Source: Caldifarciminota bacterium (GTDB taxonomy: Bacteria > Hydrothermota > Tepidihabitantia > Tepidihabitantales > DTDR01). From it: a stretch of 35,486 nucleotides of DNA. Below, one piece after another: positions 6,135 through 33,472 of the stretch. The stretch's first letter is position 1, and every line of letters begins with the position of its first letter. The DNA lies in NCBI GenBank assembly GCA_025060715.1, contig JANXBG010000017.1, positions 1 through 35,486 on the forward strand. Direction: 5' to 3'. Made by a program: the position numbers and the translations under genes. The notes under the pieces are model-generated. The model searched no databases, was not told the origin of the DNA, and was given only the letters and a program-made list of their open reading frames with translations.

Positions 6135-6135
6135 T

Positions 6136-6552: not shown

Positions 6553-6554
6553 AA

Positions 6555-6956: not shown

Positions 6957-6958
6957 AA

Positions 6959-17118: not shown

Positions 17119-18147
17119 ATGAAAGCATATAAATTAAAAAAAGAATATTTAAAGGAATATTTAAAAAGTTTAGAAGATTTTGGAGAGGTTTGGGGACCGA
17201 TAAAAAAAGGCGAGATTGATGTTTACGAAAAAATTACTGATTATTCTTTGTTAAATCTTAATGCTTTAAGACCGATTTTACCTTTAAAAAAATTTCTTAT
17301 TCCACCGAAATTTAATACTTTTTTTTACACCAAAGATGGCAAATATGAGAATGCTTTAAAGGAAGTGAAAAGGAAAATTGTATTTGGGGTTCATCCTTGT
17401 GAAATTCATGCTCTTTTAACCTTAGACCGATTATATAAAGAGAGATATCCTGATTATTATTATTTGACTCACCGCAAATCAACTTGGATTATTGCTCTTT
17501 CTTGTGTTCCGGATGATAAATGTTTTGCCCGTTCTTTAAACACCCATTTCGTAGAAGAAGGTTTTGATTTGGGATTTACGGACTTGGAGGATTATTATCT
17601 TGTATGGGTAGGCTCTTCTGAAGGAGATGATTTGTTACGCCATCGTTTGGATTTATTTGATGAAAAGATAACTTCTAAAGATTTAAATCGTTATATTGAA
17701 TGGCGAAAATGGCGAGATAATCAATATCAACTTAATTTAGATCTCACTGCTATGCCTGATATTATGGAGTTAAGTTATGACTTAGAAATTTGGAATGAAA
17801 TTGGCGAAAGATGTCTTTCTTGTGGAACTTGTAGTATGATATGTCCAACTTGTACTTGTTTTAATATTGCTGACCATTTGGGTATTGATGATGAACCAGG
17901 AAGGAGAGAGAGATTTTGGGATAGTTGTATGTTAAAAATCTTTGCCTTGGTTGCCGGTGGTCATAATTTTAGAGAAAAACGGGTAGATCGAGTAAAACTT
18001 TGGTACACTCATAAACTAAAAGCCTTTATTACTGAATTTGGTAAACCAGCTTGTGTTGGGTGTGGTAGATGTATTGCTAACTGTCCGGTTAATATAAATG
18101 TTGCGGAAATAACAAAAATTTTAAAAGGAGAAGAGGTTAAAAAATGA
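17119..18147 (+). CDS. hydB: Sulfhydrogenase beta subunit (4Fe-4S dicluster protein)
   Basis: Electron-transfer subunit of the soluble group 3b [NiFe] sulfhydrogenase, linking the gamma flavoprotein to the hydrogenase dimer. The 342-aa protein has the HydB/AsrA-family N-terminal domain with GVHPCEIHAL (90-99). Two ferredoxin-type motifs follow: C232, C235, C238, C242 in the stretch ending CPTCTCF, and C312, C315, C318, C322 in CVGCGRCIANCPV. C94, C129 and C135 are further conserved-looking cysteines. It is the first gene of the operon and its 3' end overlaps hydG by 4 nt. A paralogue heads the convergent 18-gene operon (34285-35328). Confidence 0.93.
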   Translation: MKAYKLKKEYLKEYLKSLEDFGEVWGPIKKGEIDVYEKITDYSLLNLNALRPILPLKKFLIPPKFNTFFYTKDGKYENALKEVKRKIVFGVHPCEIHALLTLDRLYKERYPDYYYLTHRKSTWIIALSCVPDDKCFARSLNTHFVEEGFDLGFTDLEDYYLVWVGSSEGDDLLRHRLDLFDEKITSKDLNRYIEWRKWRDNQYQLNLDLTAMPDIMELSYDLEIWNEIGERCLSCGTCSMICPTCTCFNIADHLGIDDEPGRRERFWDSCMLKIFALVAGGHNFREKRVDRVKLWYTHKLKAFITEFGKPACVGCGRCIANCPVNINVAEITKILKGEEVKK

Positions 18148-18980
18148 GTGAAAATTTATATGAACCCATTCCGATGAGGATTGTAAGAAGATACGATTTA
18201 GTTGAAAATGTGCGTTTTTTTCAAGTAAGACCGGTAGAAATTGAAAGAGCCCTAACTATTAATTACAAACCAGGTCAATTTATGATGATTTCCCTTTTTG
18301 GTGTTGGAGAGGCTCCTTTTTCAATCTCTTCATCCCCCTCTCGCCCTGGTTTGTTAGAATTTGGTATCAGAAAAATTGGGGTTTTAACCGAAGAACTTTT
18401 TAAACTAAAAGAGAATGAAATTATTCATATTCGTGGACCTTATGGTAACGGTTTTCCTATCGAAAAGATGTATGGTTATAATTTAATTATTGTTGCTGGT
18501 GGTTTAGGAGCTGTTCCTTTGCGTTCTTTACTTTTATATGCCTTAGATAACCGGGATTTATTTAAAAAGATTTACTTTCTTTACGGTGCCCGCCGACCTA
18601 ATGAAATGTTATTTTTAAGAGAGTTCCTGGAATTAAAAGAAAGAGAAGATTTAGAATGTCTTTTAACCGTAGATAAAGATGATACTGGTAGTTGGACAGA
18701 AAAAATTGGTGTGGTAACCGAACTTTTTAAGTATCTAAAAGATATTGACCCACAAAAAACTTATGCGGCAGTTTGTGGACCACCGGTAATGTACCGGTTT
18801 GTAATTGATAAATTAGTAAATTTACAAATTCCTAAACACCAAATTTTAATGACCTTAGAAAGAAGAATGCGTTGTGGAATGGGAAAATGTGGCCATTGTG
18901 TTATTGGTTCTATTTATACTTGCGTAGATGGACCGGTTTTTACTTATTGGGATGTTTTACATATGAAAGATTTAATATAA
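18144..18980 (+). CDS. hydG: Sulfhydrogenase gamma subunit (FAD/NAD(P)-binding diaphorase)
   Basis: Flavoprotein that exchanges electrons with NAD(P)H in group 3b hydrogenases. In this 278-aa protein the FAD-binding barrel carries PGQFMMIS (43-50) and PFSISSSPS (58-66). The NAD(P) Rossmann part carries VAGGLGAVPLRSLL (117-130) and CGPP (211-214). A C-terminal [2Fe-2S] site is formed by C244, C249, C252 and C260 (CGMGKCGHC). AGGAG upstream supports the ATG. The name means the sulfhydrogenase gamma subunit, not the FeFe-hydrogenase maturase also called HydG. A paralogue is at 33473-34288. Confidence 0.94.
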   Translation: MSENLYEPIPMRIVRRYDLVENVRFFQVRPVEIERALTINYKPGQFMMISLFGVGEAPFSISSSPSRPGLLEFGIRKIGVLTEELFKLKENEIIHIRGPYGNGFPIEKMYGYNLIIVAGGLGAVPLRSLLLYALDNRDLFKKIYFLYGARRPNEMLFLREFLELKEREDLECLLTVDKDDTGSWTEKIGVVTELFKYLKDIDPQKTYAAVCGPPVMYRFVIDKLVNLQIPKHQILMTLERRMRCGMGKCGHCVIGSIYTCVDGPVFTYWDVLHMKDLI

Positions 18981-18983
18981 TTT

Positions 18984-19766
18984 ATGGATAAAGAAAAAAA
19001 GTTAAAAATTGGTTTTTATGAATTTAGTGGCTGTGCCGGAGATTTATTAACTATTATTCATAATGAAGATTATCTTTTAAAAGTTTGGAATTCCGCAGAA
19101 ATTATTAGTTTTCGGTTGGCAACAAGTAAACGGGATGAAAAAGCCAATTTGGATATTGCTTTTGTTGAAGGTTCAATAACAGCCGAAGAACAGATAGAAG
19201 AGCTCAGAAAAATAAGAGAAAAAAGCAGAATTTTGATTGCCTTAGGAACTTGTGCTTCTTTTGGTGGTTTACAATCAATGTATTCTCATCTGGGAGACTT
19301 TTCCTCTCGTTTTAATTCTATCTATCCTCATAAGTTTACAATCTTAAAACCAATAGAATCAAAGCCCTTAGAAAGCTATGTAAAGGTAGATTATTTTATT
19401 CCTGGTTGTCCAATTGACTTTAAGCTTTTTCTTTTTAATTTTACTCGTCTTTTAAGAAATTTACCAGTAGAATTACCCTCTTATCCTGTCTGTATAGAAT
19501 GTAAATGGCAGGAAAATAATTGTCTCCTTTTAAAAAAGATCCCCTGTTTAGGTCCTTTAACGCGTGCTGGTTGTCAAGCAAGATGTCCAACCCATAATTT
19601 ACCTTGTGTTGGCTGTTTTGGTCCTTATGAAGATTTAAATCTTCCTTCGTGGTTAAAAACTCTTCAAGAAAATAATATACCTTTTAAAGAGTTAGAAAAG
19701 AAGATAAGAATGTTTTTTGGTGTAAAAGTCAAAGAAATTTTAAGCAAACTTAAGAATAAAAAATGA
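18984..19766 (+). CDS. hydD: Group 3b [NiFe] hydrogenase small (delta) subunit
   Basis: Carries the Fe-S relay next to the NiFe active site. The 260-aa protein aligns with Pyrococcus-type HydD: IGFYEFSGCAGDLL at 9-22, GTCASFGG near 89, a GCP motif, then a Cys-rich tail (CIEC, PCLGPLTRAGCQARCP, CVGCFGP) expected to hold two more [4Fe-4S] clusters. In Pyrococcus the first motif is C-Y-G-C. Here it is C17-A-G-D20, so the second proximal-cluster ligand position is Asp. An Asp ligand is known for the proximal cluster of F420-reducing hydrogenase FrhG. The gene follows hydG after 3 nt without a Shine-Dalgarno and overlaps hydA by 4 nt. Confidence 0.92.
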   Translation: MDKEKKLKIGFYEFSGCAGDLLTIIHNEDYLLKVWNSAEIISFRLATSKRDEKANLDIAFVEGSITAEEQIEELRKIREKSRILIALGTCASFGGLQSMYSHLGDFSSRFNSIYPHKFTILKPIESKPLESYVKVDYFIPGCPIDFKLFLFNFTRLLRNLPVELPSYPVCIECKWQENNCLLLKKIPCLGPLTRAGCQARCPTHNLPCVGCFGPYEDLNLPSWLKTLQENNIPFKELEKKIRMFFGVKVKEILSKLKNKK

Positions 19767-21055
19767 AAAAAATAAAAGTAGATTTAGTTAGCCGGATTGA
19801 AGGGCATGGAAATATTTATATTGAACTCTCTAATAACAAATTAAAAAACATCAGATTTGAAGTTTTCGAAGGTCCAAGATTGTTTGAGACATTGGTTTTA
19901 GAAAAAACTCCTGAAGAGGTTTTAAATATCGTATGTCGAATTTGTGCGATTTGTAATGTTTCCCATCGCTACTCAGCAATCCGGGCCTTAGAAAAGATTG
20001 GAAATATTAAGGTTCCTAAAGAAATAACTCTTTTAAGAGATTTGGCTCATTATGGAGAGATGTTAGAAAGTCATTCTCTCCATCTCTTTTTCCTTTCCTT
20101 ACCCGATTTTTTAGGCTTTCCTGATGCGGTTAGTATGGCAGAGAAATTTCCAGAACTTGTTCAAATTGGGTTAAAGATAAAAAAATTTGGAAATTCTTTA
20201 ATGGAAAAGATTTTAGGAAGGATAATGCATGGTGAAAATATGATTATTGGGGGCTTTGGTAGATACTTAACCTTGGAAGAATTAAGTAATATTAAAAAAG
20301 AGGCTGAAAAATTGTTACCGGAAGCAATAAAGGCTTGGGAAATTACTCACGACCTCCATTACACCACTTTTGGTGAAGAGAGTATGCTTTTTGTTTGTCT
20401 CAAACCACCTACTGATGAATATGGTTTTTGGGGAGATGAAGTATTAATTTCCAATGGTGAAGAATATCCTGTTGAAAAATTTTATTCCTTTATTGAAGAA
20501 AAAATTCTTCCCTATTCATCTGCTAAACATTCTTATTATCAAAATCGTCCCTATATGGTGGGTGCTTTGGCAAGAATGAGTTTATTAGGTGAAAGATTAC
20601 ATAACGCTTCGGCTGAAGCCTTTAAAAAAAGTTATAGTTTAAGTTGGATAAGAAATCCTCTATATAATAATCTGGCTCAGGCGATTGAAATTATTTTTTC
20701 CTTAGAAAAAGTGATATCAACAACTGAAGAACTTTTGAAAGGTCTTTCTTCTTTAAAAGAAACCTCTTTGACTTATCAAAAATTTAATGGAAAAGCGGTT
20801 GGTAGTGTTGAAGCACCACGTGGAACGCTTTTCCATTATTATGAGTTTAAGAATAAAAAATGTGTGAAGGCAAACCTAATTATTCCAACTGCTCAAAATT
20901 ATGCTTCTATTGAACAACATTTAAAAACTTGTGTTTGCAACATAATTAAAAAATTTGGAACAAAAGAAGAGGAGATGATAAAGGAAGCTGAAAAAATTAT
21001 CCGAGCTTACGATCCTTGTATTTCTTGTTCTTGTCACATTGTAAAAACTTCTTAA
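19763..21055 (+). CDS. hydA: Group 3b [NiFe] hydrogenase large (alpha) subunit
   Basis: Catalytic subunit of the soluble sulfhydrogenase, interconverting H2 and 2H+ with electrons to or from NAD(P)H through HydD-HydB-HydG. The protein has 430 aa. The N-terminal nickel motif is R59-ICAICNVSH (C61, C64, H68) and the C-terminal motif is D417-PCISCSCH (C419, C422), so all four NiFe ligands are present. Only five residues (IVKTS) follow the final His. This matches the short tail removed in Pyrococcus HydA, so an endopeptidase encoded elsewhere is expected. Its stop overlaps the stop of the convergent gene at 21052, with no terminator visible between the two operons. Confidence 0.95.
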   Translation: MKKIKVDLVSRIEGHGNIYIELSNNKLKNIRFEVFEGPRLFETLVLEKTPEEVLNIVCRICAICNVSHRYSAIRALEKIGNIKVPKEITLLRDLAHYGEMLESHSLHLFFLSLPDFLGFPDAVSMAEKFPELVQIGLKIKKFGNSLMEKILGRIMHGENMIIGGFGRYLTLEELSNIKKEAEKLLPEAIKAWEITHDLHYTTFGEESMLFVCLKPPTDEYGFWGDEVLISNGEEYPVEKFYSFIEEKILPYSSAKHSYYQNRPYMVGALARMSLLGERLHNASAEAFKKSYSLSWIRNPLYNNLAQAIEIIFSLEKVISTTEELLKGLSSLKETSLTYQKFNGKAVGSVEAPRGTLFHYYEFKNKKCVKANLIIPTAQNYASIEQHLKTCVCNIIKKFGTKEEEMIKEAEKIIRAYDPCISCSCHIVKTS

Positions 21056-21660
21056 TATCCCCAAACTTCTTCTAAGTATGCCTTTCTTCGGCACGCAGGA
21101 CAGAGAATTTGCATATGGGAAGCCCGATAAGGAAATTCTTTTATTTCAACATTTGGTTCATATACTAAGCCCAATTCTTTATAATAAATCAAAAAAAGGG
21201 TTGGATTAGCAGAAATTAAGTTACCAACTTTTTTAGCGATCCAAATAATCTGGTCTTTAGGTGCAATTGAGTCGCCGCAAGAAGCACATAAAACTAATTC
21301 TTTCTCTATTTTATTTTTATAATTATCTTTCTTAAATGATGCTAAATCAAATTCTGGTGTATGTTTTATACCTTCACCAGTAATACAATATCTTACACAT
21401 TGGCCACAATAAACACATTTTTCCTCATAATGAATTACTTTTCTAATTTTTCTCTCTTTCTCATCAATTATTTCTCGTGCTTTAGAAGGACAGACTTCAG
21501 CGCAAGCACCGCAGCCGACACATTTTTCTTTATTAAAAATAATTTTTCCTCGAAAATTAGGAGATACCTTTGCTGGTTGATAAGGGAATTTTATAGTATA
21601 AGGACCTTTTAAAATCGCTTTTATTGCCTCTTTTAATTCTCTTAATTTAGGTTGCTTCAT
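21052..21660 (-). CDS. mbhN: Membrane hydrogenase ferredoxin-like subunit (MbhN/NuoI/HycF type)
   Basis: Peripheral Fe-S subunit that passes electrons to the small subunit of the group 4 hydrogenase. The 202-aa protein has two [4Fe-4S] motifs: C47, C50, C53, C57 (CVGCGACAEVCP) and C82, C85, C88, C92 (CVYCGQCVRYC). A C-terminal extension has CxxC pairs at 125/128 (CASCG) and 187/190 (CPAC), resembling the zinc-ribbon tail of HycF-type subunits. It is the last gene of the 18-gene operon, overlaps mnhG by 14 nt and is tail-to-tail with hydA. In Thermococcales mbhN follows mbhM directly, so its place at the far end here is a rearrangement. Confidence 0.9.
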   Translation of the reverse strand: MKQPKLRELKEAIKAILKGPYTIKFPYQPAKVSPNFRGKIIFNKEKCVGCGACAEVCPSKAREIIDEKERKIRKVIHYEEKCVYCGQCVRYCITGEGIKHTPEFDLASFKKDNYKNKIEKELVLCASCGDSIAPKDQIIWIAKKVGNLISANPTLFLIYYKELGLVYEPNVEIKEFPYRASHMQILCPACRRKAYLEEVWGY

Positions 21661-22012
21661 CTTCTTTACTTATTTGTGAATAGCCTTTTTTATCCTCACC
21701 AAACTTATCAATTACACTTTTATGCCAAAGTTTTGTTCCAAAGAGTAAAGAACCTCTTGATAAAGCATGGGCGGCTACGGGCATAGTGAAGAGGATAAAT
21801 AAAGCGCAAATTAAAGCCTTTATTCCCATTTGATTAAAACCACGGATAAAAAAGATACCCAACATAATGCCACAGGTTCCAATAGTAACACATTTTGTAG
21901 AGGCTTGCATTCGATTATATAAATCAGGAAATTTTACTAAACCTAAGGCACCCAATAAATTAAAAATCACACCAAAGATGATAGATATCCAACCTAAATA
22001 ATAGAAAATCAT
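21647..22012 (-). CDS. mnhG: Mrp-type Na+/H+ antiporter subunit G
   Basis: A 121-aa membrane protein with three predicted helices, equivalent to MnhG/MrpG and to MbhC of the membrane-bound hydrogenase. Family marks are LGALGLVKFPDLYNRMQAS at about 21-39, then TKCVTIGTCGIMLG, and HALSRGS near the end. It is part of the Na+-translocating module. It lies 12 nt after mnhF and overlaps the mbhN start by 14 nt. Confidence 0.9.
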   Translation of the reverse strand: MIFYYLGWISIIFGVIFNLLGALGLVKFPDLYNRMQASTKCVTIGTCGIMLGIFFIRGFNQMGIKALICALFILFTMPVAAHALSRGSLLFGTKLWHKSVIDKFGEDKKGYSQISKEDEAT

Positions 22013-22024
22013 AAACTCTCCTTT

Positions 22025-22279
22025 TTAATCATCTAAATGTCTTCCTTCTAAATATTTTGCTAATGCCAATGTACCGATAAAGGCTAATATTGCAATAGTG
22101 ATTGAAAGATCTAAAAGATAGGGTAGATTGTAGCGAAAAGCCATCAAGGCTGTAATTCCACAAAAGAGAATTGACATAATATCAACCGCAATTGCCCGGT
22201 CGGAAATAGAAGGTCCTCTTAAAGCTCGATAAAGACTAAAAAAGGCAGCTAATGATAAAGTAATAATTAAAATACTCAT
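22025..22279 (-). CDS. mnhF: Mrp-type Na+/H+ antiporter subunit F
   Basis: An 84-aa protein with three membrane helices, the usual size of MnhF/MrpF and MbhB. The motif RALRGPSISDRAIAVDIMS at 18-36 is the hallmark, with a conserved Asp in SDR. It is followed by a helix with YNLPYLLDLSI and ends at KYLEGRHLDD. It lies between mnhE and mnhG, the canonical E-F-G order of Mrp operons. Confidence 0.92.
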   Translation of the reverse strand: MSILIITLSLAAFFSLYRALRGPSISDRAIAVDIMSILFCGITALMAFRYNLPYLLDLSITIAILAFIGTLALAKYLEGRHLDD

Positions 22280-22281
22280 AA

Positions 22282-22770
22282 TTATTCAAAAATCCTTTTT
22301 AAATACTTTTCAAAAGTTTGGGCAATCATTTTTTTTGCCTTTTCTTCTTCTTCCTCTTTTATCCAAATCCAATGGATATAAAGAGTATCGCCATCAATTT
22401 CACAAGTCATTGTTCCTGGTGTTAAAGTAATAGAATTTGCTAAAAAAGTCTTAGCGATTTCTGTTTTTAAAGAGGTTTTTATTTTTATAATTCCTGGTTT
22501 TAAAGGCATACCGGGATGGAGAACTCTTAAGGCTACATCCAAATTTGCTTCTATACATTTATAAGCAAATATCGGAATATAAACCAAAAGCCAAAACCAC
22601 CTATGAATTTGGAAAATTTTTATTGGTTTCTCAATAAAATAACCACCAAAAATAAAAGCACTTAATAGAGAAACAAAAATACCAACAATAATTTCATCAT
22701 AATTTAAATTAAAAGTAAATAAAAACCATAAAATTAAAGCGACCAAAAAAAAGATAATCTTTCTGTTCAT
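22282..22770 (-). CDS. mnhE: Mrp-type Na+/H+ antiporter subunit E
   Basis: A 162-aa membrane protein of the MnhE/MrpE (MbhA) family. Two N-terminal helices lie at 5-20 and 27-45. IHRWFWLLVYIPIFAYKCIE leads to the conserved DVALRVLHPGMPLKPGIIKI. The cytoplasmic part contains ANSITLTPGTMTCEIDGDTL, the family signature. The gene overlaps mnhD by 4 nt and precedes mnhF after 2 nt. A structural role in the Na+ module is known for the family. Confidence 0.93.
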   Translation of the reverse strand: MNRKIIFFLVALILWFLFTFNLNYDEIIVGIFVSLLSAFIFGGYFIEKPIKIFQIHRWFWLLVYIPIFAYKCIEANLDVALRVLHPGMPLKPGIIKIKTSLKTEIAKTFLANSITLTPGTMTCEIDGDTLYIHWIWIKEEEEEKAKKMIAQTFEKYLKRIFE

Positions 22771-24266
22771 TTCATCAAAACTAATCTCGCGTATTCAATA
22801 CCCCTAATCACTACTTCGCTGGCTTTATTAATTAAATTTGGCTGCAAGTAATTGAAATAGAAAATACCAAAAATGAAAATTAAAAAAACTAAAAATAGAA
22901 AACTAATCGCCGATAAGGAATTTTCTTTCACTTCCTCTCCTTCTTTATTAGTAAAAACCTTATTAGTGATTTTTAATAAATAAGCCAATGTTAATATAGA
23001 AAAAATTCCTAATATAATCGCTAATCCTAACATTTTTTCTTTAATTGCTCCTAAAATCAAAAATAGTTTAGGGAAAAACCCTAAAAAGGGAGGGATTCCT
23101 GCTAAAGAGAGAGCACCTAAAGTGTAAACCAATCCATAAAAGGACATTCTCTTTTTTAAAAGAGTAAGTTCATTAATATCCAAAGTACCCGCTTCTCTTT
23201 CTACTGAACCAGCGGTCAAAAATAGAAGCCCTTTACTTAAGGCATGGGCAAAAATTAAAGTTAAAGCACCAATAATTCCAAAGAAATTACTAAGGCCTAA
23301 GCCAACAAAAATATAACCAATCTGACTAATAGTGGAGTAGGCTAATAACCTTTTATAATTTTCTTGTTTTAAAGTAATAAAGCTGGTAATTATTATTGAT
23401 AGAATTCCAAGGATAAGAAGTAGATTAAAATAATGAGGTGCGTTGTTTCTATTTAACCCAAAAACATTAAAGATTAAACGAAAAAGAGTATAAACTCCTA
23501 AGGTTTTAATAAAAATTCCTGAAAGTATTGCCGAAATTGGTGCAGGTGCTTGTGAATGGGCATCCGGTAGCCAAAAATGGAAAGGAAAGAGAGCAGATTT
23601 TATTAAAAATCCAAAGGTTAAAAGGGAGATGATAAACCAGAATAAAGTCCCTTTATTTTCATTTAAAAAAGTATTGGCAATATCTGCCATATTTAATGTT
23701 GATGTTTTTGCATAAATTAAAGCAATTGCTAAAAGAATAGTTAAACCACCTACCTCACCGATCACTTGGTATTTGAAACTAGCTTCCAAATCTTCTTTTT
23801 CCACGCCAAAAGCCACTAAGGCATAAGAAGAGATTGCTGAAATTTCAATAAAAACAAAAAGATTAAACAAATCGCCAGTAATTGCCACTCCATTTAAACC
23901 AGCAATTAGTAATAAAAATAAAGTCCAAAATTTCCAACGGGCAGTATAATTATCTAAATAATTAATTGAATAAACAGCACAAGCAAAACTTAATAAGTTG
24001 ATTGCTAAAACCATTAGCAGTGATAAACTATCAAAGGTAAAAACAATACCTAGGGGAATTGGTCTTATTGGCCATTTACCAATTTCATAAACATAAAGAT
24101 CCCCAAAAATTGGTAAGAGAAAAATAGAATAGATACTTAAAATCAAAAGAAAGGTAGTGATAATACTACCAATAATATCAGATAGCCTTTCCCATATCTT
24201 AGAAAGTAAAGGGGTTAAAAAAGCGCCTAAAAGAGGTAAAGCAGTAAATAAAGGTAGATAATTCAT
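22767..24266 (-). CDS. mnhD: Mrp/MbhH-type antiporter subunit D (proton-translocating)
   Basis: A 499-aa polytopic protein of the NuoL/M/N family with about 14 helices, the size of MnhD and MbhH. Conserved channel residues are visible: Glu in FIEISAISSYALV, Lys in FLIKSALFPFHFWLPDAH, and Lys in the helix of FAHALSKGLLFL. A loop KQENYKRLLAYSTISQIGY matches the family. The protein is expected to couple ion movement to the redox arm. It is one of three antiporter-like subunits in the operon and the most canonical MnhD, being flanked by mnhC and mnhE. Confidence 0.93.
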   Translation of the reverse strand: MNYLPLFTALPLLGAFLTPLLSKIWERLSDIIGSIITTFLLILSIYSIFLLPIFGDLYVYEIGKWPIRPIPLGIVFTFDSLSLLMVLAINLLSFACAVYSINYLDNYTARWKFWTLFLLLIAGLNGVAITGDLFNLFVFIEISAISSYALVAFGVEKEDLEASFKYQVIGEVGGLTILLAIALIYAKTSTLNMADIANTFLNENKGTLFWFIISLLTFGFLIKSALFPFHFWLPDAHSQAPAPISAILSGIFIKTLGVYTLFRLIFNVFGLNRNNAPHYFNLLLILGILSIIITSFITLKQENYKRLLAYSTISQIGYIFVGLGLSNFFGIIGALTLIFAHALSKGLLFLTAGSVEREAGTLDINELTLLKKRMSFYGLVYTLGALSLAGIPPFLGFFPKLFLILGAIKEKMLGLAIILGIFSILTLAYLLKITNKVFTNKEGEEVKENSLSAISFLFLVFLIFIFGIFYFNYLQPNLINKASEVVIRGIEYARLVLMK

Positions 24267-24601
24267 TCTTTTAATCTTTTTATCTCTTTAATATCTAAAG
24301 TTTTGTATTTTTCATAAATTCTTACAGCTACTGACAAAAGTAAAGCAGTTGTCCCTAAACCGATTACGATAGCTGTTAAAACCAAAGCCTGAGGAATTGG
24401 ATCAACAAAATTTTTAGATTGAGAAACATTAGTATAAATTGGTGCCAAGGCATCTTTTTTATATCCAATTAAAGCAAAAAATAGATTTACGGCATATTCT
24501 AATAAGCAAAAACCAATAGCAATTTTAATTAAATTTCTTTTGGTTAATATTGCGTAAATACCAATTAAAAAAAGGATTATACAACATAAATAGGGAACCA
24601 T
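24263..24601 (-). CDS. mnhC: Mrp-type Na+/H+ antiporter subunit C (NuoK-like)
   Basis: A 112-aa protein with three helices, related to NuoK and equivalent to MnhC and MbhG. Marks are IGIYAILTKRNLIKIAIGF, the following LLEYAVNLFF with a membrane Glu, and the motif DPIPQALVLTAIVIGLGTTA at 67-86. The last motif is diagnostic for MnhC/NuoK-like antiporter subunits. The gene follows mnhB after 2 nt and overlaps mnhD by 4 nt. Confidence 0.93.
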   Translation of the reverse strand: MVPYLCCIILFLIGIYAILTKRNLIKIAIGFCLLEYAVNLFFALIGYKKDALAPIYTNVSQSKNFVDPIPQALVLTAIVIGLGTTALLLSVAVRIYEKYKTLDIKEIKRLKE

Positions 24602-24603
24602 AA

Positions 24604-25038
24604 CTACTCCTTCATTATAAATCTTGTTGCGGCTATTGCCAAAAAGATGGCAAAAAGTCCTGCCCCCACTTTTATCCCAATTGCCACATTACATAAAGGA
24701 ATTATTCCTGAAGAAAAAAGCATAAAAACCTTTCCTTTTGGTAAAAAGTTATAGAAAAAGTAAGAACCCAACAGAAGACCAAAGAGGGCAATGAAAACGA
24801 ATAAAAGCCCACCAATACTTTCAAAGATTGAGGAATAAATATATCCTATCCTCTCTTTAATCTCTTCGCTACCAAAAGCAAGAATTAAAAGGATGAAAGA
24901 AGCAGAAATTATCACTCCACCAGCAAAGCCACCTCCGGGTGTTAAATGGCCATGAGTAATAATATATATTCCATAGAGAAAAATTAATCCAACTAAAAGT
25001 TTGGTTATTGTTTTTACAATAATTGTCATTCCTCTCAT
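24604..25038 (-). CDS. mnhB: Mrp-type Na+/H+ antiporter subunit B
   Basis: A 144-aa membrane protein of the MnhB/MbhF family with four helices. The N-terminal part shows YGIYIITHGHLTPGGGFAGG at 19-38, the family signature, followed by a helix with VIISASFILLILAF. The ending NVAIGIKVGAGLFAIFLAI matches as well. The start at MRGMTIIVK overlaps the preceding gene by 4 nt. A start at the second Met (position 4) is also possible. Confidence 0.93.
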   Translation of the reverse strand: MRGMTIIVKTITKLLVGLIFLYGIYIITHGHLTPGGGFAGGVIISASFILLILAFGSEEIKERIGYIYSSIFESIGGLLFVFIALFGLLLGSYFFYNFLPKGKVFMLFSSGIIPLCNVAIGIKVGAGLFAIFLAIAATRFIMKE

Positions 25039-25568
25039 TTTTTCTTTCCAATCTTTCTTAAAATTGTTAAGACACCTATCACTGAAGTAAAGAGAACAGT
25101 GGCTTCTCCTAATGTATCATAACCTCGGAAATCTAAAATCACTGCTGCCACTTGATTAGCCGCTTTTATCTCTTCAAATCCTTTTGCTAAATAATGAGAA
25201 GCAATTTTCATAATTGGTTTTCCAAATTCGGGTAATTCTTTTAATGCTGAAATAGAAAAGATTAAAAAGAATATTCCGAAGATAACAAAAACTCCTTTTG
25301 TTAAATAATCTCTTACTTCCATTTTATTTTCTAAAGTAGTATCAATATGAGTAGTTTTTAATATCACAGCAACAAAAATAATTACCGTTAAAACTTCCAC
25401 AACTATTTGAACGATTGCTAAATCAGGAGCTTGAACTAAAATAAATATAATAGCTACTGAAAAACCAACAATTCCTAAGGAAATTGCTGATGCTAATAAA
25501 TCTTTAATTTCTACTGCAACAATTCCAGCACCAATTGAAGCAATCAATAAAATATAAAGTTCAATCAT
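25035..25568 (-). CDS. Fused MbhD-MbhE subunit (MnhA C-terminal-like, DUF4040)
   Basis: A 177-aa membrane protein that joins in one chain what Pyrococcus encodes as separate MbhD and MbhE. The N-terminal half (about 1-75) is the DUF4040/MrpA C-terminal segment: AVEIKDLLASAISLG, then VQAPDLAIVQIVVEVLT with membrane Asp and Glu. The C-terminal half carries NQVAAVILDFRGYDTLGEAT at about 139-158 and a final helix, the MbhE signature. The fusion itself resembles the C-terminal end of MrpA. It lies between the large antiporter-like gene and mnhB with 4-nt overlaps on both sides. Confidence 0.88.
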   Translation of the reverse strand: MIELYILLIASIGAGIVAVEIKDLLASAISLGIVGFSVAIIFILVQAPDLAIVQIVVEVLTVIIFVAVILKTTHIDTTLENKMEVRDYLTKGVFVIFGIFFLIFSISALKELPEFGKPIMKIASHYLAKGFEEIKAANQVAAVILDFRGYDTLGEATVLFTSVIGVLTILRKIGKKK

Positions 25569-27448
25569 AGTATTAAAATTAATAAAATTATAACAATTCC
25601 AATAAATATTACAACTAAATAATCACTCAAAATTCCTGATTGGAATTTTCTTAATAAACTACCAAAAGTTTCAGAAAAATAAACAATTGTTTGATAGATT
25701 ATTTCTAAAATAAAATCAATCACTTTTTTAAATAATAAAGAGATAGTACCCAAAATTGTCTTTAAATAATTATAGAAATCAAAACTACCTTCTTCACCAA
25801 ACTCAAAACCTTTACTTAATAACGGAGCTTCTTTAATCGGTGAATAAAATTGATCACCTGAGAAATGTCTCTCTTCTTCTTTTAACGATTCGCCACCAAT
25901 AAATATTTCTCTCTTTTCAATTTTTTGAATAGCGCCCCACATATAAATCACAAAGCCAATGCCTATCCCTAAAATAATTAAAATAAAAGCTAATGTTGGT
26001 TGCCAAAAACCTATTTCTTCAATTTTAAATGGTAAAGAAGGATAAATTAACCCTTTTAAAGGTAAAGGAATGGCTAATATACCAAATAAAATACAAAGAA
26101 AGGCTAATAAAGATGAAGGGAACCATAATGAAAAATTAACTTCTTTTATTTTCTCATACTCTTTGGGCCTATCACCAAGAAAGATGGAATGGGTTAATTT
26201 CAAAAAAGAAGCAAGAGTAAGAACGCTACCAAACATTGCTGCTAATAAATATAAAAGAAATAAATAATTTCCCTCTTTGTATAAATAAATCACCCCTTGA
26301 TAGATCATTCTTTTTGAGAAAAAACCATTTAATGGAGGAATTCCTGAGATTGCTAACGCAGAGATTAAAAAGGAAGTAAAGGTTATTGGCATATTTACCG
26401 CTAAACCACCAAGTTTTTCAATTCTTGTTTCCTTTGTCCAAAATTCTACTTGGCCGGTAGTTAAAAAAAGAGAAGTTTTATAGAGTGTATTATTAAGCAT
26501 ATGAAAAAGACTCCCAGCAACACCAATTGGAACTCCTGTTCCAATACCTAAAACCATATAGCCCACCTGTGATACTGCATGAAAAGAAAGAAGTTTCATT
26601 GCCTCTTTTTGGATTAATGCCATTAGTACGGCTGCTAAAATTGTTATTGAACCGACTATCATTAGATAGTTTTTTAATGTAAAATTAGTATTTAAATCAA
26701 AAAGATAATAACTTACCTTTAAAAGCAAATATATTCCAAGTAGTTTATCTAAGGAAGCAGGAATGAATGCCATTGTTGAAGCAGGCATCACTTTACTAAT
26801 TTCTGGTATCCAAGAATGGAGAGGGATTGCTCCTGCCTTAGCAAAGCAACCAATTGTGATTAAAATATAAGCCAAAATATTTAAATTATTATTTAAAGAT
26901 ATTTTTAAATTTAAAGGAATATTGCCATAAGAAACAAACAATAAAGCAAAACCAAGGATTAATAGAAAATCGCTTAAACCTAAAATAAAAATACTTTTTA
27001 TAAAAGCATCTTCACTATTATTTTTAGTGGTATATTGGAAAAAGCCAAAGATTAAAGATAATAAAATTCCCCAAAAAATCATCAAGGTAATGATATTATT
27101 TGCCAAAACAATTCCGCAACTAATAGAGCCAATTAAAAGAAGATAATAAAAATATTCTTTTTTCTTTTCATAATATTTTAAATACCGAATAGAATAGATA
27201 AGAATTAAAAGAGTAAAAAGGGAGATAAATAAAAGAACAAAACCGCTCAATTTATCAACACCAAAATTAAATATTCCAAAGGTTTTTCTAATAACCTCTG
27301 TTTTTCTTGATATAAAAAAAATCCTTACTGCATAATGAAAGTTTAAAATCGCCCCTAAGAAATAAAATTCATTTCTTAAAAAACTCACCAAATAACCTAA
27401 AAATCCAAAAATTATTGGTAAAATAATTAAAAGTTCAAAACTGCTCAT
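25565..27448 (-). CDS. NuoL/HyfB-like antiporter subunit with C-terminal lateral helices
   Basis: A 627-aa proton-translocating-type membrane subunit. The core shows KAGAIPLHSWIPEISKVMPA (channel Lys), KEAMKLLSFHAVSQVGYMVL, and FHMLNNTLYKTSLFLTTG with a Lys in a membrane helix. ISGIPPLNGFFSKRMIYQG is the usual HyfB/NuoL-type loop. After a break with a soluble segment (FIGGESLKEEERHFSGDQFY), the C-terminal 100 residues form amphipathic and hydrophobic helices. These could act as the lateral arm or as an MbhI equivalent, since no separate mbhI is seen. Pyrococcus MBH has only one antiporter subunit of this class, so this is extra. It overlaps both neighbours by 4 nt. Confidence 0.88.
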   Translation of the reverse strand: MSSFELLIILPIIFGFLGYLVSFLRNEFYFLGAILNFHYAVRIFFISRKTEVIRKTFGIFNFGVDKLSGFVLLFISLFTLLILIYSIRYLKYYEKKKEYFYYLLLIGSISCGIVLANNIITLMIFWGILLSLIFGFFQYTTKNNSEDAFIKSIFILGLSDFLLILGFALLFVSYGNIPLNLKISLNNNLNILAYILITIGCFAKAGAIPLHSWIPEISKVMPASTMAFIPASLDKLLGIYLLLKVSYYLFDLNTNFTLKNYLMIVGSITILAAVLMALIQKEAMKLLSFHAVSQVGYMVLGIGTGVPIGVAGSLFHMLNNTLYKTSLFLTTGQVEFWTKETRIEKLGGLAVNMPITFTSFLISALAISGIPPLNGFFSKRMIYQGVIYLYKEGNYLFLLYLLAAMFGSVLTLASFLKLTHSIFLGDRPKEYEKIKEVNFSLWFPSSLLAFLCILFGILAIPLPLKGLIYPSLPFKIEEIGFWQPTLAFILIILGIGIGFVIYMWGAIQKIEKREIFIGGESLKEEERHFSGDQFYSPIKEAPLLSKGFEFGEEGSFDFYNYLKTILGTISLLFKKVIDFILEIIYQTIVYFSETFGSLLRKFQSGILSDYLVVIFIGIVIILLILIL

Positions 27449-28563
27449 AAAATTTTTAAAAAATAAATTAAAAATAAAGTTCCCAATATTAATAATAAAA
27501 GTCCAAAAATATAAACAATTGAGGTAGCAATAATATTTTCTCCCTTCTCTTTTTTTAATAGTGGATAAAATTTCAAAGAATAAAGTAAAGTAAAAAGAGA
27601 ACTAATGATTGCTGAAACTCCTAAAAGAATATTTAATTTCAAACTACCAATAATAATCAATAATTTTCCAATAAAACCAAGAAAAGGAGGAATTCCCATT
27701 AAGGATAAAGATAAAAGGGCTAAACCAAAATTTACGCTACCGTCTTCTTTTGCTTCCATTTTGTAAAATAAACCCGGTTTTGCTAAAGCGTGGGATAGAA
27801 TTAAAATAAAGGCCCCAATTATCCCAATATCATTTTTTAAAGCTAAGCCAAATAAGATAAAAGAAAGTTGGCTAATTGTTGAATAAGCTAAAATTCTTTT
27901 TAATTCTTTCTCAAAATAAGCAATTCCTCCAGCAATTATAGAAGTAAAGATTGCTAAAATAATAATGAAATGATAAAAAGAAATTTCCATTTCTAACCAA
28001 TTAGAGATGAATATTTTGTAAAAGAGAATTAAACCCAAATTTTCAGCTATTCCACAAAGAAGGGCAATTATTGGTATTGGTGAAACTTCATAAACAATTG
28101 GTAGCCAATTATAAAATGGAATAATTGCTGATTTAGTAAATATACCACAGGATAATAAAATTCCCGATAAAAATGAGATATGATAAATATTTCTTAAATC
28201 AAAAGCCTCAAAAGTTATATTTTCGATTCCATTTTCTATTAAAAGAAGCGAAATCCCAATTAACATTAATATTGCTCCGGCAAAATTAAAATATAAAAGA
28301 TAATTACCAGCCTTAATATTTTCTCTTTTTATTAAAACCAATCGCCAGGTTGCCAAGGTGGAAATTTCAAAAAAGATATAAATCAACAAAAGATTATTAG
28401 AAATAATGATAGCATAGGAAGAAAGAGCAAGTAAAATTAAAAAGATATAGAATTCAAAATTTCTTATTAATCTATCTTCAAAGGAATAAATTAAAGTTGC
28501 TAAAAAGGGTAATGCGAAAGTGAATAATAAGTATTGATTTATAAAGTTTTTATCAAAAATCAT
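27445..28563 (-). CDS. Short NuoN/MnhD-like antiporter subunit
   Basis: A 372-aa polytopic protein, shorter than NuoM/N or MnhD (about 450-500). It retains the family features: membrane Glu in FFEISTLATWRLV, Lys in GIFTKSAIIPFYNWLP, the loop EKELKRILAYSTISQLSFIL, and Lys in ILSHALAKPGLFYKM. ALLSLSLMGIPPFLGFIGK is the second characteristic loop. Helices appear to be missing at both ends compared with MnhD. It overlaps the large-subunit gene by 4 nt and the 627-aa gene by 4 nt. It could be a second ion channel or a structural spacer. Confidence 0.85.
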   Translation of the reverse strand: MIFDKNFINQYLLFTFALPFLATLIYSFEDRLIRNFEFYIFLILLALSSYAIIISNNLLLIYIFFEISTLATWRLVLIKRENIKAGNYLLYFNFAGAILMLIGISLLLIENGIENITFEAFDLRNIYHISFLSGILLSCGIFTKSAIIPFYNWLPIVYEVSPIPIIALLCGIAENLGLILFYKIFISNWLEMEISFYHFIIILAIFTSIIAGGIAYFEKELKRILAYSTISQLSFILFGLALKNDIGIIGAFILILSHALAKPGLFYKMEAKEDGSVNFGLALLSLSLMGIPPFLGFIGKLLIIIGSLKLNILLGVSAIISSLFTLLYSLKFYPLLKKEKGENIIATSIVYIFGLLLLILGTLFLIYFLKIL

Positions 28564-29738
28564 ATTTTATTATATTTCTCTTTTAATTTTTCTGTCAATT
28601 TCCAAGAGAGTTTTAGAATATCCTCATAATCCATAATTTTTTTGTTATCTAAATAAACCGCAATTCTTTCCGTGCAACAATAACAAGGGTCAACAGCTGC
28701 TAAGGTAAGTGCGGCATCAGCAATTGAGTATCCTACACAAGCATAAGCATTAGAAGCAATATTCATATAACTTGGTGCCCGTATTTTATGTCTGATTGGA
28801 TGGTTCATCCCACTGGTTCTTACATAATGAAACACTTCTCCTCTCGGCGCCTCTGCCCGACCAATTCCTTCACCCGCGGGAATTTCGTCAATCCTTCTTT
28901 CAATCTCTCCCTTAGGCATTTTTTTTAAACATTGTCTAATAATTTTTATTGATTCTAAACATTCTAATAATCTCACTTTTGCTTTTGCTAATACATCTCC
29001 CTCTTCAAAAACAATCACATCCCAATCAATTTTATCATAAGCAGCGTGAGGATCATCCTTTCTCACATCAATTTTTATACCACTTGCTCTTGCGGTAGGA
29101 CCTACTACACCGTAATCAATTGCTACTTCTTTTGGCAAAATTCCTACATCTTTTAACCTGGCTAAAATTACTGGATCATCTAAAATTGCCTTGGTGAACA
29201 TCAAAGTAGCCCTTTCCACCTCTAATAAAATATTCTCAATAATCGGAATTTGTTCATCTTTTATATCCCATCTTACACCACCAATTTTATTCATTGCGTA
29301 ATGGTTTCTATTGCCGGTAATCATTTCAAAAATATCTAATATTGGCTCCCGATATTTCCATGCCCACATCCAAACAGTATTATAACCGATAAAATGGCCA
29401 GCAAGTCCAAGCCAAAGAAAATGGGAATGGAGTCTTTCTAATTCATGGTTTATTGTCCTTATATATAATGCCCTTTCAGGAACTTCAATCTTTGCCGCAT
29501 CTTCTACTGCTTGCACAAAGGCTAAAGGATGAGAGTTAGAACAAATTCCACATATCCTTTCCACTAAGTAAGGAATCTGTTCATAAGTCATCTTTGGTGA
29601 TAAAAATTCGTGCCCCCGGTGATTATAGCCAATATTAATTTCTAATTCTACTACTTTTTCTCCTTCCACAATCAACTTAAAAAATTCGGGTTCTTCCTGT
29701 AATGGATGATAAGGACCGATAGGAATTACTCTTCTCAT
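28560..29738 (-). CDS. mbhL: Group 4 membrane-bound [NiFe] hydrogenase large subunit
   Basis: Catalytic subunit of the membrane complex. The 392-aa protein has the complex-I-related fold (NuoD/MbhL). The N-terminal motif RICGICSNSH (C63, C66) and the C-terminal motif D350-PCYCC (C352, C355) supply all four NiFe ligands. This sets it apart from NuoD and from MbxL/MbsL, where nickel ligands are lost. The tail after C355 is 37 residues long and ends in KEKYNKI, so a cleaved C-terminal extension is not evident. GHEFLSPKMTYEQIPYLVE precedes the first motif. It overlaps the NuoC-like gene and the next antiporter gene by 4 nt each. Confidence 0.96.
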   Translation of the reverse strand: MRRVIPIGPYHPLQEEPEFFKLIVEGEKVVELEINIGYNHRGHEFLSPKMTYEQIPYLVERICGICSNSHPLAFVQAVEDAAKIEVPERALYIRTINHELERLHSHFLWLGLAGHFIGYNTVWMWAWKYREPILDIFEMITGNRNHYAMNKIGGVRWDIKDEQIPIIENILLEVERATLMFTKAILDDPVILARLKDVGILPKEVAIDYGVVGPTARASGIKIDVRKDDPHAAYDKIDWDVIVFEEGDVLAKAKVRLLECLESIKIIRQCLKKMPKGEIERRIDEIPAGEGIGRAEAPRGEVFHYVRTSGMNHPIRHKIRAPSYMNIASNAYACVGYSIADAALTLAAVDPCYCCTERIAVYLDNKKIMDYEDILKLSWKLTEKLKEKYNKI

Positions 29739-30166
29739 ATCATTTCAAAATCTCTTCTTAAAGGATATTTATCCCTTTGCCAATCTTCGCTTGTTAATAA
29801 TGGTTTTAGATTCTTATGGCCAATAAATTCAACACCTAGTAATTCCCAAATTTCTCTTTCAATCCATTCGCTTGCCTTAGTAATATCCGAAATGGTATCA
29901 ACTTTTGCATTATCTCTTTCGGTAAAAATTCTTATTGTATAATAAGTTCCGGTTTTGTCATCAGAAAAATGGTAAAGAATTTCTATTCCTTCTCTCGTAT
30001 CAATTCCCGTCATAATTGATAATCTCAATCCTTTTTCTTTATGTAAAAAATAGGCAATCTCTCTAATCTTTTCTTTACTAATTTTTAAATATAATCTTCT
30101 TTTATTATGCTCATAGACCTCTATTTCAGGAAATCTATTTTTTATCTCTGCTAATAATTCATTCAT
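29735..30166 (-). CDS. mbhK: NuoC-like subunit of the membrane hydrogenase (MbhK type)
   Basis: A 143-aa protein of the complex I 30-kDa/NuoC family, which helps assemble the large and small subunits. The family signature is EWIEREIWELLGVEFIGHKN at about 101-120, preceded by FTERDNAKVDTISDITKAS. The ending KYPLRRDFEMI is also typical. Overlaps of 4 nt with the small- and large-subunit genes indicate coupled translation. It is the usual neighbour pair of the group 4 core. Confidence 0.92.
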   Translation of the reverse strand: MNELLAEIKNRFPEIEVYEHNKRRLYLKISKEKIREIAYFLHKEKGLRLSIMTGIDTREGIEILYHFSDDKTGTYYTIRIFTERDNAKVDTISDITKASEWIEREIWELLGVEFIGHKNLKPLLTSEDWQRDKYPLRRDFEMI

Positions 30167-30576
30167 AATTTATTTAATGCCTTCACTATACCCGCAATTA
30201 TTGCTTCGGGTCTTGGTGGACAACCTGGGATATAAACATCTACTGGCAAATATTTATCATAAGGTCCAACCACATTATAAGAATCTTTAAACATATGGCA
30301 ATCACAAGCACAAGTTCCAATAGCAATCACTAAACAAGGTTTTGGAGTTTGATTATAAACCTCTAAAACCCTGGGCAAAGTTTTTCTGTTAATTACTCCG
30401 GTAACTAATAAGGCATCAGCATGTCTTGGTGAACCAACCAAAAGAATGCCAAACCTTTCAACATCAAATCTTGGTGTTAAAGCAGCCAAGATTTCAATAT
30501 CGCAGTTATTACACGAAGCAGCCGAAACATGAAAAACCCAGGGAGATTTTTTAAGTGCCTTTAATTTAATGCTCAT
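30163..30576 (-). CDS. mbhJ: Membrane hydrogenase small subunit (MbhJ/NuoB type)
   Basis: Holds the proximal [4Fe-4S] cluster that receives electrons from the NiFe site. In this 137-aa protein the cluster ligands are C22 and C25 (SCNNCD), C89 in IGTCACD and C119 in GCPPRPE. Residues around AASCNNCDIEILAALTPRFD fit group 4 small subunits. All four ligands are Cys, unlike the HydD subunit of the neighbouring soluble hydrogenase. It overlaps mbhM and mbhK by 4 nt each. Confidence 0.95.
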   Translation of the reverse strand: MSIKLKALKKSPWVFHVSAASCNNCDIEILAALTPRFDVERFGILLVGSPRHADALLVTGVINRKTLPRVLEVYNQTPKPCLVIAIGTCACDCHMFKDSYNVVGPYDKYLPVDVYIPGCPPRPEAIIAGIVKALNKL

Positions 30577-33471: not shown

Positions 33472-33472
33472 A

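What the first reader, a model, noticed from the sequence alone, without database searches (positions are those of the whole stretch)
17119..21055. Two hydrogenases with the same beta/gamma architecture side by side
The soluble operon HydB-HydG-HydD-HydA lies beside an operon whose first two genes are diverged HydB and HydG homologues. This looks like reuse of one NAD(P)H diaphorase for both a soluble and a membrane-bound hydrogenase. It would let the cell balance NAD(P)H, H2 and ion gradients. The two gene pairs give a natural test of duplication against separate acquisition.
Basis: partly seen in the sequence, partly recalled or inferred. Interest (0 to 1): 0.55.

Follow-up and report, generated by a model that had tools for sequence, protein, structure and literature searches.

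The report
NAD(P)H-linked ion-pumping hydrogenase beside soluble one
A bacterium of the uncultured WOR-3 group carries, tail to tail, a soluble hydrogenase and a membrane hydrogenase that each appear to have their own, anciently separate NAD(P)H-handling module; the membrane one looks like a complex-I-like ion pump that exchanges electrons between NAD(P)H and hydrogen, using a burnt-out formate dehydrogenase as wiring.

Summary
Duplication or a shared diaphorase is not supported. The HydB copies are 27% identical, and both trees put the pairs in separate clades: S with P. furiosus sulfhydrogenase I and other 3b enzymes, M in a multi-phylum clade of group 4 hydrogenase operons (AU p 2.7e-52, 1.6e-26). 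A third HydBG kind sits beside FlpD/Hdr-type genes. So an old module is reused, one copy per complex. M-type HydB is in 55 of 61 genomes searched and in Omnitrophota, Planctomycetota and others. M keeps all Ni ligands, a mostly conserved Fe-S route from an NAD(P)H-binding flavoprotein, and antiporter-type subunits (number varies). In WOR-3 it has an extra formate-dehydrogenase-fold subunit keeping one 4Fe-4S site and no catalytic Cys, in a lineage with no detected molybdopterin synthesis. Best reading: ion-translocating NAD(P)H:H+ oxidoreductase. One such cluster was noted in 2019 with donor unknown; donor assignment, breadth and the inactive FDH subunit are added here. No activity is shown.

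The parts
17119..18147 (+). S-HydB: soluble hydrogenase beta subunit (4Fe-4S protein)
   Evidence: PF17179 1.1e-33; ShyB model 8.2e-84; P. furiosus SHI beta 9nez_B 2.3e-73
18144..18980 (+). S-HydG: soluble hydrogenase gamma subunit (FAD, NAD(P), 2Fe-2S)
   Evidence: PF00175, PF00970, PF10418; 9nez_C 1.5e-64
18984..19766 (+). S-HydD: small (delta) subunit
   Evidence: PF01058 6e-21; HydD model 4.2e-55
19763..21055 (+). S-HydA: large [NiFe] subunit, group 3b type
   Evidence: PF00374 1.9e-31; ShyA 9.1e-107; ligands
34285..35328 (-). M-HydB: HydB/AsrA-like 4Fe-4S protein, first gene of the membrane operon on this contig
   Evidence: PF17179 8.7e-23; ShyB 4.3e-33; 13 of its 15 conserved Cys in 92 of 92 rows, the other two in 91 and 86 (2 of the rows are Hdr-type pairs)
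33473..34288 (-). M-HydG: FAD/NAD(P)-binding 2Fe-2S protein, predicted NAD(P)H site of the membrane complex
   Evidence: PF00175 2.6e-15, PF10418 6.1e-09; 9nez_C 1.2e-47; four 2Fe-2S Cys in 96 of 96 rows (5 rows are Hdr-type pairs)
31936..33492 (-). NuoG/FdhA-like subunit (TTG start), no catalytic Cys, one 4Fe-4S site; seen here only in WOR-3
   Evidence: NuoG model 9.6e-13; Cys pattern 50 of 50 rows; AF2 pLDDT 90.7; FDH/NuoG fold
31484..31957 (-). HycB-like ferredoxin subunit, 16 Cys, four 4Fe-4S predicted
   Evidence: PF13247 3.5e-13; Cys of clusters 2-4 in 89-93 of 93 rows, three Cys of the first motif in only 80-83
30573..31499 (-). NuoH/MbhM-like membrane subunit
   Evidence: PF00146 7.5e-64
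30163..30576 (-). NuoB/MbhJ-like small subunit, 4Fe-4S ligands conserved
   Evidence: PF01058 1.9e-30; C22, C25, C89, C119 in 83 of 83 rows
29735..30166 (-). NuoC/MbhK-like subunit
   Evidence: PF00329 5.2e-27
28560..29738 (-). NuoD/MbhL-like large subunit with four Ni ligands
   Evidence: closest solved: P. furiosus MbhL 6cfw_L 7.3e-88, E. coli FHL subunit 5 8.4e-73; C63, C66, C352, C355 in 74 of 74 rows
27445..28563 (-). antiporter-like subunit 1 (NuoM/N-like), Glu and Lys conserved
   Evidence: PF00361 7.5e-42; E66, K144 in 42 of 42 rows
25565..27448 (-). NuoL/MrpA-like antiporter subunit; Glu at the expected TM5 place replaced
   Evidence: PF00361 7.7e-41; Gly in 45, Glu in 5 of 69 rows at that column
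25035..25568 (-). MbhD-MbhE-like (MrpA C-terminal part)
   Evidence: PF13244, PF20501
24604..25038 (-). MrpB/MnhB
   Evidence: PF04039 7e-27
24263..24601 (-). MrpC/MnhC
   Evidence: PF00420 2.1e-29
22767..24266 (-). MrpD-like antiporter subunit
   Evidence: PF00361 4.6e-67; E141, K223, K254 in 36 of 36 rows
22282..22770 (-). MrpE/MnhE
   Evidence: PF01899 5.3e-41
22025..22279 (-). MrpF
   Evidence: PF04066 2.1e-15; ORF
21647..22012 (-). MrpG/MnhG
   Evidence: PF03334 2e-22
21052..21660 (-). NuoI/MbhN-like ferredoxin, last gene, overlaps the end of HydA by 4 bases
   Evidence: Fer4 and Fer4_7 matches

Best explanation
Two separate hydrogenases, each with its own NAD(P)H input module of one old, widely reused type. 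S (17119-21055) is a soluble group 3b [NiFe] hydrogenase. M (35328 to 21052) is a membrane-bound, group 4, complex-I-like [NiFe] hydrogenase with an Mrp-type membrane arm. In M a hydride goes from NAD(P)H to the HydG flavin, then electrons pass through HydG 2Fe-2S, HydB 4Fe-4S clusters, the single cluster of a catalytically dead formate-dehydrogenase-like subunit (a WOR-3 addition), the HycB-like and NuoI-like clusters and the NuoB cluster to the NiFe site; electron transfer is coupled through NuoH and antiporter-type subunits to H+/Na+ movement. Direction follows H2 pressure: H2 evolution with ion export when H2 is very low, or NAD(P)+ reduction by H2 driven by the ion gradient. Shown by sequence: genes, ligands, fold, separate ancestry, distribution. 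Inferred: NAD(P)H as physiological partner, the order of clusters, ion coupling, direction, assembly into one complex.
For: M-HydG has FAD, NAD(P) and 2Fe-2S domains; its closest solved relative is P. furiosus sulfhydrogenase 1 gamma. HydB, HydG and the hydrogenase genes stay together in WOR-3 and other phyla: HydB directly upstream of HydG in 72 of 74 named loci with room, NuoD downstream in 50 of 51, an Mrp-type gene in 42 of 45. Cluster and Ni ligands are conserved. A Rex gene (NADH/NAD+-sensing repressor; its role recalled) lies beside HydB in 11 of 40 loci outside WOR-3 (10 of 39 if only loci with 1 kb upstream are admitted) and 0 of 26 inside (one of the 11 confirmed by profile, the rest by similarity to it). 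NuoG-like subunit: four cluster Cys in 50 of 50 rows, aligned catalytic position never Cys, FDH/NuoG fold; MoaA C-terminal domain 0 of 61, MoeA 0 of 61 over cut-off, 11 of 14 controls each. The genome (92% complete) has RnfC/RnfD and no other Complex1_51K protein, so NADH made by Rnf could be the donor. HydB and HydG trees agree.
Against: No biochemistry. HycB-like and NuoI-like ferredoxin subunits would also allow ferredoxin, the donor usually assumed for Mrp-linked group 4 enzymes. The NAD(P)H/H2 couple offers little energy except at very low H2 (recalled values). WOR-3 genomes show no Rex (0 of 21), so the Rex argument is borrowed from other phyla. The first HycB cluster is missing in 10-13 of 93 rows and the NuoL-like subunit has lost its TM5 Glu. 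The membrane arm varies: of 20 fetched WOR-3 loci 13 have all three antiporter-like subunits, 4 (one family, f4) have one, 2 break off early and 1 is cut short by the fetched stretch, so pumping may be reduced in some lineages. Nothing shows that the operon makes one complex.
Confidence: 0.68

Rival explanations
1. M is an ordinary ferredoxin-dependent Mrp-linked hydrogenase; HydBG is a side module that makes it a three-way enzyme (ferredoxin plus NADH confurcating to H2, or ferredoxin:NADP+ transfer).
For: HycB-like and NuoI-like ferredoxin subunits are present; HydDB lists group 4g as putatively ferredoxin-coupled and of unknown function (PMC5037454, passages); HydBG-type pairs also sit with FlpD and, in some loci, HdrA-type genes, the setting of flavin-based bifurcation (recalled).
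Against: No NuoF-type or HdrA-type flavin subunit was found among the operon's genes. The gene order HydB-HydG-HycB reads as one wire. Rnf is present to turn ferredoxin into NADH.
Confidence: 0.22
2. The FDH-like subunit is a working molybdenum or tungsten oxidoreductase (formate or another substrate), so M is a formate-hydrogenlyase-like complex.
For: FDH fold over nearly the full length, the alignment to FDH-H running to its residue 690, so a C-terminal domain may survive in reduced form; the 2019 paper reports a molybdopterin oxidoreductase it could not classify in the Saganbacteria counterpart (PMC6349859).
Against: Aligned catalytic position Glu in 43 of 50 rows and Cys in none; no molybdopterin-binding C-terminal Pfam match at E 0.001; MoaA-C and MoeA not found in the class; 24-32% identity to relatives whose NuoB is 75-87% identical.
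Confidence: 0.04
3. The two HydB/HydG pairs are a WOR-3 duplication, perhaps of one operon.
For: Same beta-then-gamma order, adjacency in one genus.
Against: AU tests reject window S+M as sisters, p 2.7e-52 (HydG) and 1.6e-26 (HydB); the M clade spans several phyla; S-HydB groups with P. furiosus SHI at 99/96.
Confidence: 0.02

Closest known systems
Pyrococcus furiosus soluble hydrogenase I (sulfhydrogenase; group 3b; PDB 9nez)
   Same: S operon has all four subunits and groups with it; M has homologues of its beta and gamma subunits
   Different: M lacks the delta/alpha partners and uses a group 4 hydrogenase and a membrane arm
Pyrococcus furiosus membrane-bound hydrogenase MBH (PDB 6cfw)
   Same: NuoD-like subunit closest to MbhL among solved structures; Mrp-type subunits
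   Different: MBH takes electrons from ferredoxin and has no HydBG, NuoG-like or HycB-like subunits (recalled); M in this window has three antiporter-like subunits
Saganbacteria RX5A group 4 hydrogenase locus (PMC6349859)
   Same: group 4 hydrogenase, Mrp-like subunits, cooF, asrA and asrB, molybdopterin-type protein; probably the same kind of operon
   Different: described in one genome group, donor left unknown; sequences not aligned here
E. coli formate hydrogenlyase (PDB 7z0t)
   Same: FDH-fold subunit plus ferredoxin subunit plus group 4 hydrogenase
   Different: FDH subunit is dead here, electrons predicted from NAD(P)H; Mrp-type arm
ElpA of Methanothermobacter marburgensis (PMC12350162; PDB 8rvu)
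   Same: FdhA homologue that binds no molybdopterin and stays in an electron-donor arm with a flavin subunit
   Different: belongs to an F420H2:Hdr complex; lacks the molybdopterin-binding region outright
Respiratory complex I
   Same: homologous NuoB/C/D/H/L core, an FDH-like NuoG without FDH activity (recalled) as wiring, antiporter subunits, NAD(P)H input
   Different: input module is HydBG, not NuoEF; the terminal site keeps all Ni ligands, so the predicted acceptor is H+, not quinone

Membership tests
Group 3b [NiFe] hydrogenase (sulfhydrogenase), for S | beta-gamma-delta-alpha gene set | tested here: met
   (scores below the models' curated cut-offs)
Group 3b [NiFe] hydrogenase (sulfhydrogenase), for S | four Ni-binding Cys in the large subunit | tested here: met
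   RICAIC and DPCISC
Group 3b [NiFe] hydrogenase (sulfhydrogenase), for S | groups with known 3b enzymes in trees | tested here: met
   18 of the 19 3b rows in one set, 96/88 (HydG) and 98/97 with P. furiosus SHI inside (HydB); the long-branch Paraburkholderia 3b row falls outside
Group 3b [NiFe] hydrogenase (sulfhydrogenase), for S | NADPH-linked H2 and sulfur-reductase activity | not testable with these tools
   needs enzyme
Group 4 energy-converting [NiFe] hydrogenase, for M | NuoB/C/D/H-like core with all Ni ligands | tested here: met
   Ni ligands in 74 of 74 rows
Group 4 energy-converting [NiFe] hydrogenase, for M | antiporter-type membrane subunits | tested here: met
   number varies among relatives
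HydDB subgroup 4g, for M | classification by the HydDB tool | not tested
   classifier not available; two papers call Omnitrophota enzymes 4g (passages)
Complex I (NADH:quinone oxidoreductase) | NuoE/NuoF NADH module | tested here: not met
   no operon gene matches it; the only PF01512 hit in the genome is RnfC
Complex I (NADH:quinone oxidoreductase) | loss of Ni ligands in NuoD | tested here: not met
   ligands kept
Formate hydrogenlyase / formate dehydrogenase | catalytic Cys or Sec and molybdopterin synthesis | tested here: not met
   0 of 50 rows Cys at the aligned position; MoaA-C 0 of 61, MoeA 0 of 61 over cut-off, one weak hit
Anaerobic sulfite reductase AsrABC | asrC beside asrA-asrB, and tree position with Asr | tested here: not met
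   no operon gene matched an AsrC model; the two Asr rows form a separate clade

The most novel reading that the evidence does not exclude
The M operon defines a widespread NAD(P)H-coupled branch of ion-pumping [NiFe] hydrogenases: a 'complex I whose acceptor is protons', fed by a HydBG/AsrAB-type diaphorase instead of NuoEF, giving a donor to part of the group 4 hydrogenases whose donor is listed as unknown or putatively ferredoxin. In WOR-3 a formate dehydrogenase was recruited and reduced to one iron-sulfur stepping stone in a lineage without molybdopterin synthesis, a parallel to the origin of NuoG and to ElpA.
Probability: 0.55. Interest if true: 0.68.

Novelty: new variant of a known kind. 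Interest (0 to 1): 0.5.

Why it matters
[quoted passage not shown] If NAD(P)H is the partner, many uncultured anaerobes (WOR-3, Omnitrophota, Planctomycetota, Elusimicrobiota and others) would have a single enzyme tying NAD(P)H, H2 and ion gradients together, which changes how their energy budgets and syntrophy are modelled. The WOR-3 subunit looks like a formate dehydrogenase turned into a wire in a lineage without detected molybdopterin synthesis, a further case of the step proposed for complex I.

Tried and rejected
In-place duplication: rejected by both trees and AU tests. Active formate dehydrogenase: rejected by residue and missing cofactor genes. Ehr-type (Ni-less) complex: rejected, Ni ligands intact. 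Rex control in WOR-3: no Rex domain in 21 genomes. A scan of the window for a Rex-like operator (consensus recalled) gave 29 loose matches against 16.8 expected, none in the stretches upstream of either operon; nothing was concluded. Promoter and terminator scans were near background. A motif look at HydG for NADH against NADPH preference was not decisive, and my pattern failed on several rows.

Labels and rows: the first quick HydG tree had L204 labelled 3b although no HydD/HydA was in that stretch; it was relabelled 'unk' before the careful trees. L069 carried the label Hdr in the trees although no FlpD or Hdr gene is visible in its stretch; FlpD was confirmed by profile for L062, L065, L067, L072 and L074. 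Six of 80 named loci had no HycB before their contig ended. Two of 74 loci failed the strict HydB-upstream distance because of over-long ORFs, but one search lists HydB in them. Conservation counts include a few Hdr-type pairs (2 HydB rows, 5 HydG rows) and seven pairs of rows that are the same genome reached twice, so the 50 NuoG-like rows are 43 distinct. The plasmid search with M-HydG found only relatives under 60% identity.

Literature: none of the listings pointed to a paper describing this complex as NAD(P)H-linked; I opened only some of the listed papers and the library is partial. The Atribacteria 'Hun' hydrogenase-antiporter complex, recalled by me, was not found (no paper) and could not be compared; it may overlap with this system.
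Full report
What is there. The window is a whole 35,486-base contig of a 1.6 Mb genome in 86 contigs, 92% complete. The nearest named loci are from candidate division WOR-3 / Stahlbacteria, so it is almost certainly WOR-3. The plus-strand genes 17119-21055 are beta, gamma, delta and alpha subunits of a group 3b-type soluble hydrogenase (P. furiosus SHI beta 2.3e-73 and gamma 1.5e-64). The minus-strand operon reads HydB-like, HydG-like, NuoG/FdhA-like, HycB-like, NuoH, NuoB, NuoC, NuoD, an antiporter-like subunit, a NuoL-like subunit, MbhD/E-like, MrpB, MrpC, MrpD, MrpE, MrpF, MrpG and a NuoI-like ferredoxin. Its last gene overlaps the end of HydA by four bases.

Are the two pairs sisters? No. 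HydB copies are 27% identical. Trees of 54 HydG and 54 HydB sequences put all 22 membrane-operon copies in one clade (100/99 and 100/100). The window S copy falls with other 3b hydrogenases including P. furiosus. Forcing the window pair together is rejected (p 2.7e-52 and 1.6e-26). Two rows are long (Paraburkholderia, and P. furiosus in HydG), and the Paraburkholderia 3b row falls outside the 3b set. A third set of HydBG-like pairs lies next to FlpD and, in some loci, HdrA-type genes in WOR-3 and in Ilyobacter polytropus, and AsrAB is a fourth. So the module was reused several times, before WOR-3 diversified.

Distribution. Of 61 genomes (own plus 60 relatives), 55 have a hit with the M-HydB query at E 3.3e-50 or better, and one more has a partial hit of 51% identity. 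16 have a close S-HydA (424 bits or more), one more a distant 3b. A 98% complete same-genus genome (G001) has M-HydB (cut by a contig end) but no close S-HydA. Of 14 genomes with both, only the window's and one same-genus genome have them on one contig. Of 20 relatives' loci fetched, 13 hold the whole marked gene set, 4 loci of one family have a single antiporter-like subunit (one of them, L041, no MrpB either), 2 break off (after the NuoG-like gene in L050, after the first antiporter subunit in L055) and 1 was cut short by the fetched stretch. These are the closest hits, not an unbiased sample.

The extra WOR-3 subunit. Between HydG and HycB, 30 of 31 readable WOR-3/Stahlbacteria-labelled loci have room for and hold a 480-624 aa gene of this kind, and 0 of 43 other loci have the room; six of 80 were cut by contig ends. 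The exception, L138, lies outside the WOR-3 clade in the trees. All 50 aligned copies (43 distinct) keep four Cys in a CxxCxxxC...C pattern. The column aligned to the formate dehydrogenase selenocysteine (alignment) is Glu in 43, and Cys in none. AlphaFold2 gives a confident model (pLDDT 90.7, pTM 0.91). The best structural match is a Bacillus formate dehydrogenase (Z 25.2); FDH-H scores Z 23.8 over 491 residues, ElpA (8rvu_D) Z 22.9 over 309, complex I NuoG Z 21.0 over 468. The alignment to FDH-H runs to the model's end, so the C-terminal domain may persist in reduced form. MoaA C-terminal domain was found in 0 of 61 genomes, and MoeA in none over cut-off (one weak hit), while 11 of 14 control genomes have each. 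A paper on WOR-3 MAGs reports formate dehydrogenase annotations, including F420-type ones in 33 genomes (PMC12542636, passages), which sits uneasily with the missing cofactor genes; subunits like this one could be a source of such calls, which I did not test. ElpA is the closest precedent: an FdhA homologue without molybdopterin in an electron-donor arm (PMC12350162, passages).

How it likely works. Conserved ligands give a plausible route: FAD/NAD(P) and 2Fe-2S in HydG, 4Fe-4S sites in HydB, the NuoG-like site, 16 Cys in the HycB-like protein (first motif incomplete in 10-13 of 93 rows), NuoI-like and NuoB sites, and a NiFe site with all four Cys in 74 of 74 rows. The Glu and Lys residues used for pumping in this family (recalled) are kept in the first antiporter-like subunit and MrpD, while the NuoL-like subunit has lost the TM5 Glu. 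A Rex gene beside HydB in 11 of 40 loci outside WOR-3 (5 of 7 Planctomycetota, 4 of 23 Omnitrophota, 2 unplaced; one of the 11 admitted with under 1 kb upstream) points to NADH/NAD+ as the signal the operon answers to there. The own genome has RnfC/RnfD and no other Complex1_51K protein. From recalled potentials, NAD(P)H to H2 pays only at very low H2, so the direction may reverse. Donor, coupling and assembly are inferences.

What is known. Matheus Carnevali et al. [quoted passage not shown] Papers on Omnitrophota list Mrp-linked or membrane 4g hydrogenases for redox balance (PMC8542988, PMC10066038, passages). The 2025 WOR-3 genome paper's short hydrogen section names Mvh-Hdr and Rnf (PMC12542636, section 16). 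The paper on the first WOR-3 isolate notes that most of the lineage tends to have an NADP-reducing hydrogenase (PMC12285271, passages). So the kind of operon is known from one description; its breadth, the NAD(P)H reading and the dead FDH subunit appear to be additions, within the searches named.

Verdict. A real, conserved, interesting system; ordinary as to the soluble enzyme, and a new variant of a known kind as to the membrane enzyme.

Noticed in passing
window 11474-12482 (-): HypA- and HypB-like nickel-maturation genes (by eye) lie a few kb from the hydrogenases; an NAD(P)HX repair-type gene follows at 12538-14115.
   Followed up: no
L076 6111-8521 (G000:C6): A third [NiFe] hydrogenase, large subunit VhuA-like (2e-116) plus a small subunit, without Hdr genes in the fetched stretch.
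   Followed up: partly
L117 410-4958 and from 5030: A Planctomycetales-labelled bin has a 3b operon and a maturation protease gene directly in front of the M operon in tandem; its 3b HydG and HydB (row L158, same genome) belong to a different branch from WOR-3's, so the neighbourhood probably arose separately.
   Followed up: partly
L103 and L082: Two chromosome-level MAGs have the M operon broken off after HycB and after the first antiporter subunit: rearrangement or assembly error.
   Followed up: no
L037, L038, L041, L043 (family f4): Shortened membrane arm with one antiporter-like subunit; L041 also lacks MrpB.
   Followed up: partly
window 3738-5486 (-): Large protein ending in what looks like a type IX-type sorting domain, next to ExbD/TonB-like genes at 5517-7567; identity by eye only.
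   Followed up: no
HydB tree: WOR-3 soluble HydB is sister to P. furiosus SHI (99/96) rather than to Omnitrophota 3b enzymes; only one archaeal row, so transfer across domains is untested.
   Followed up: no
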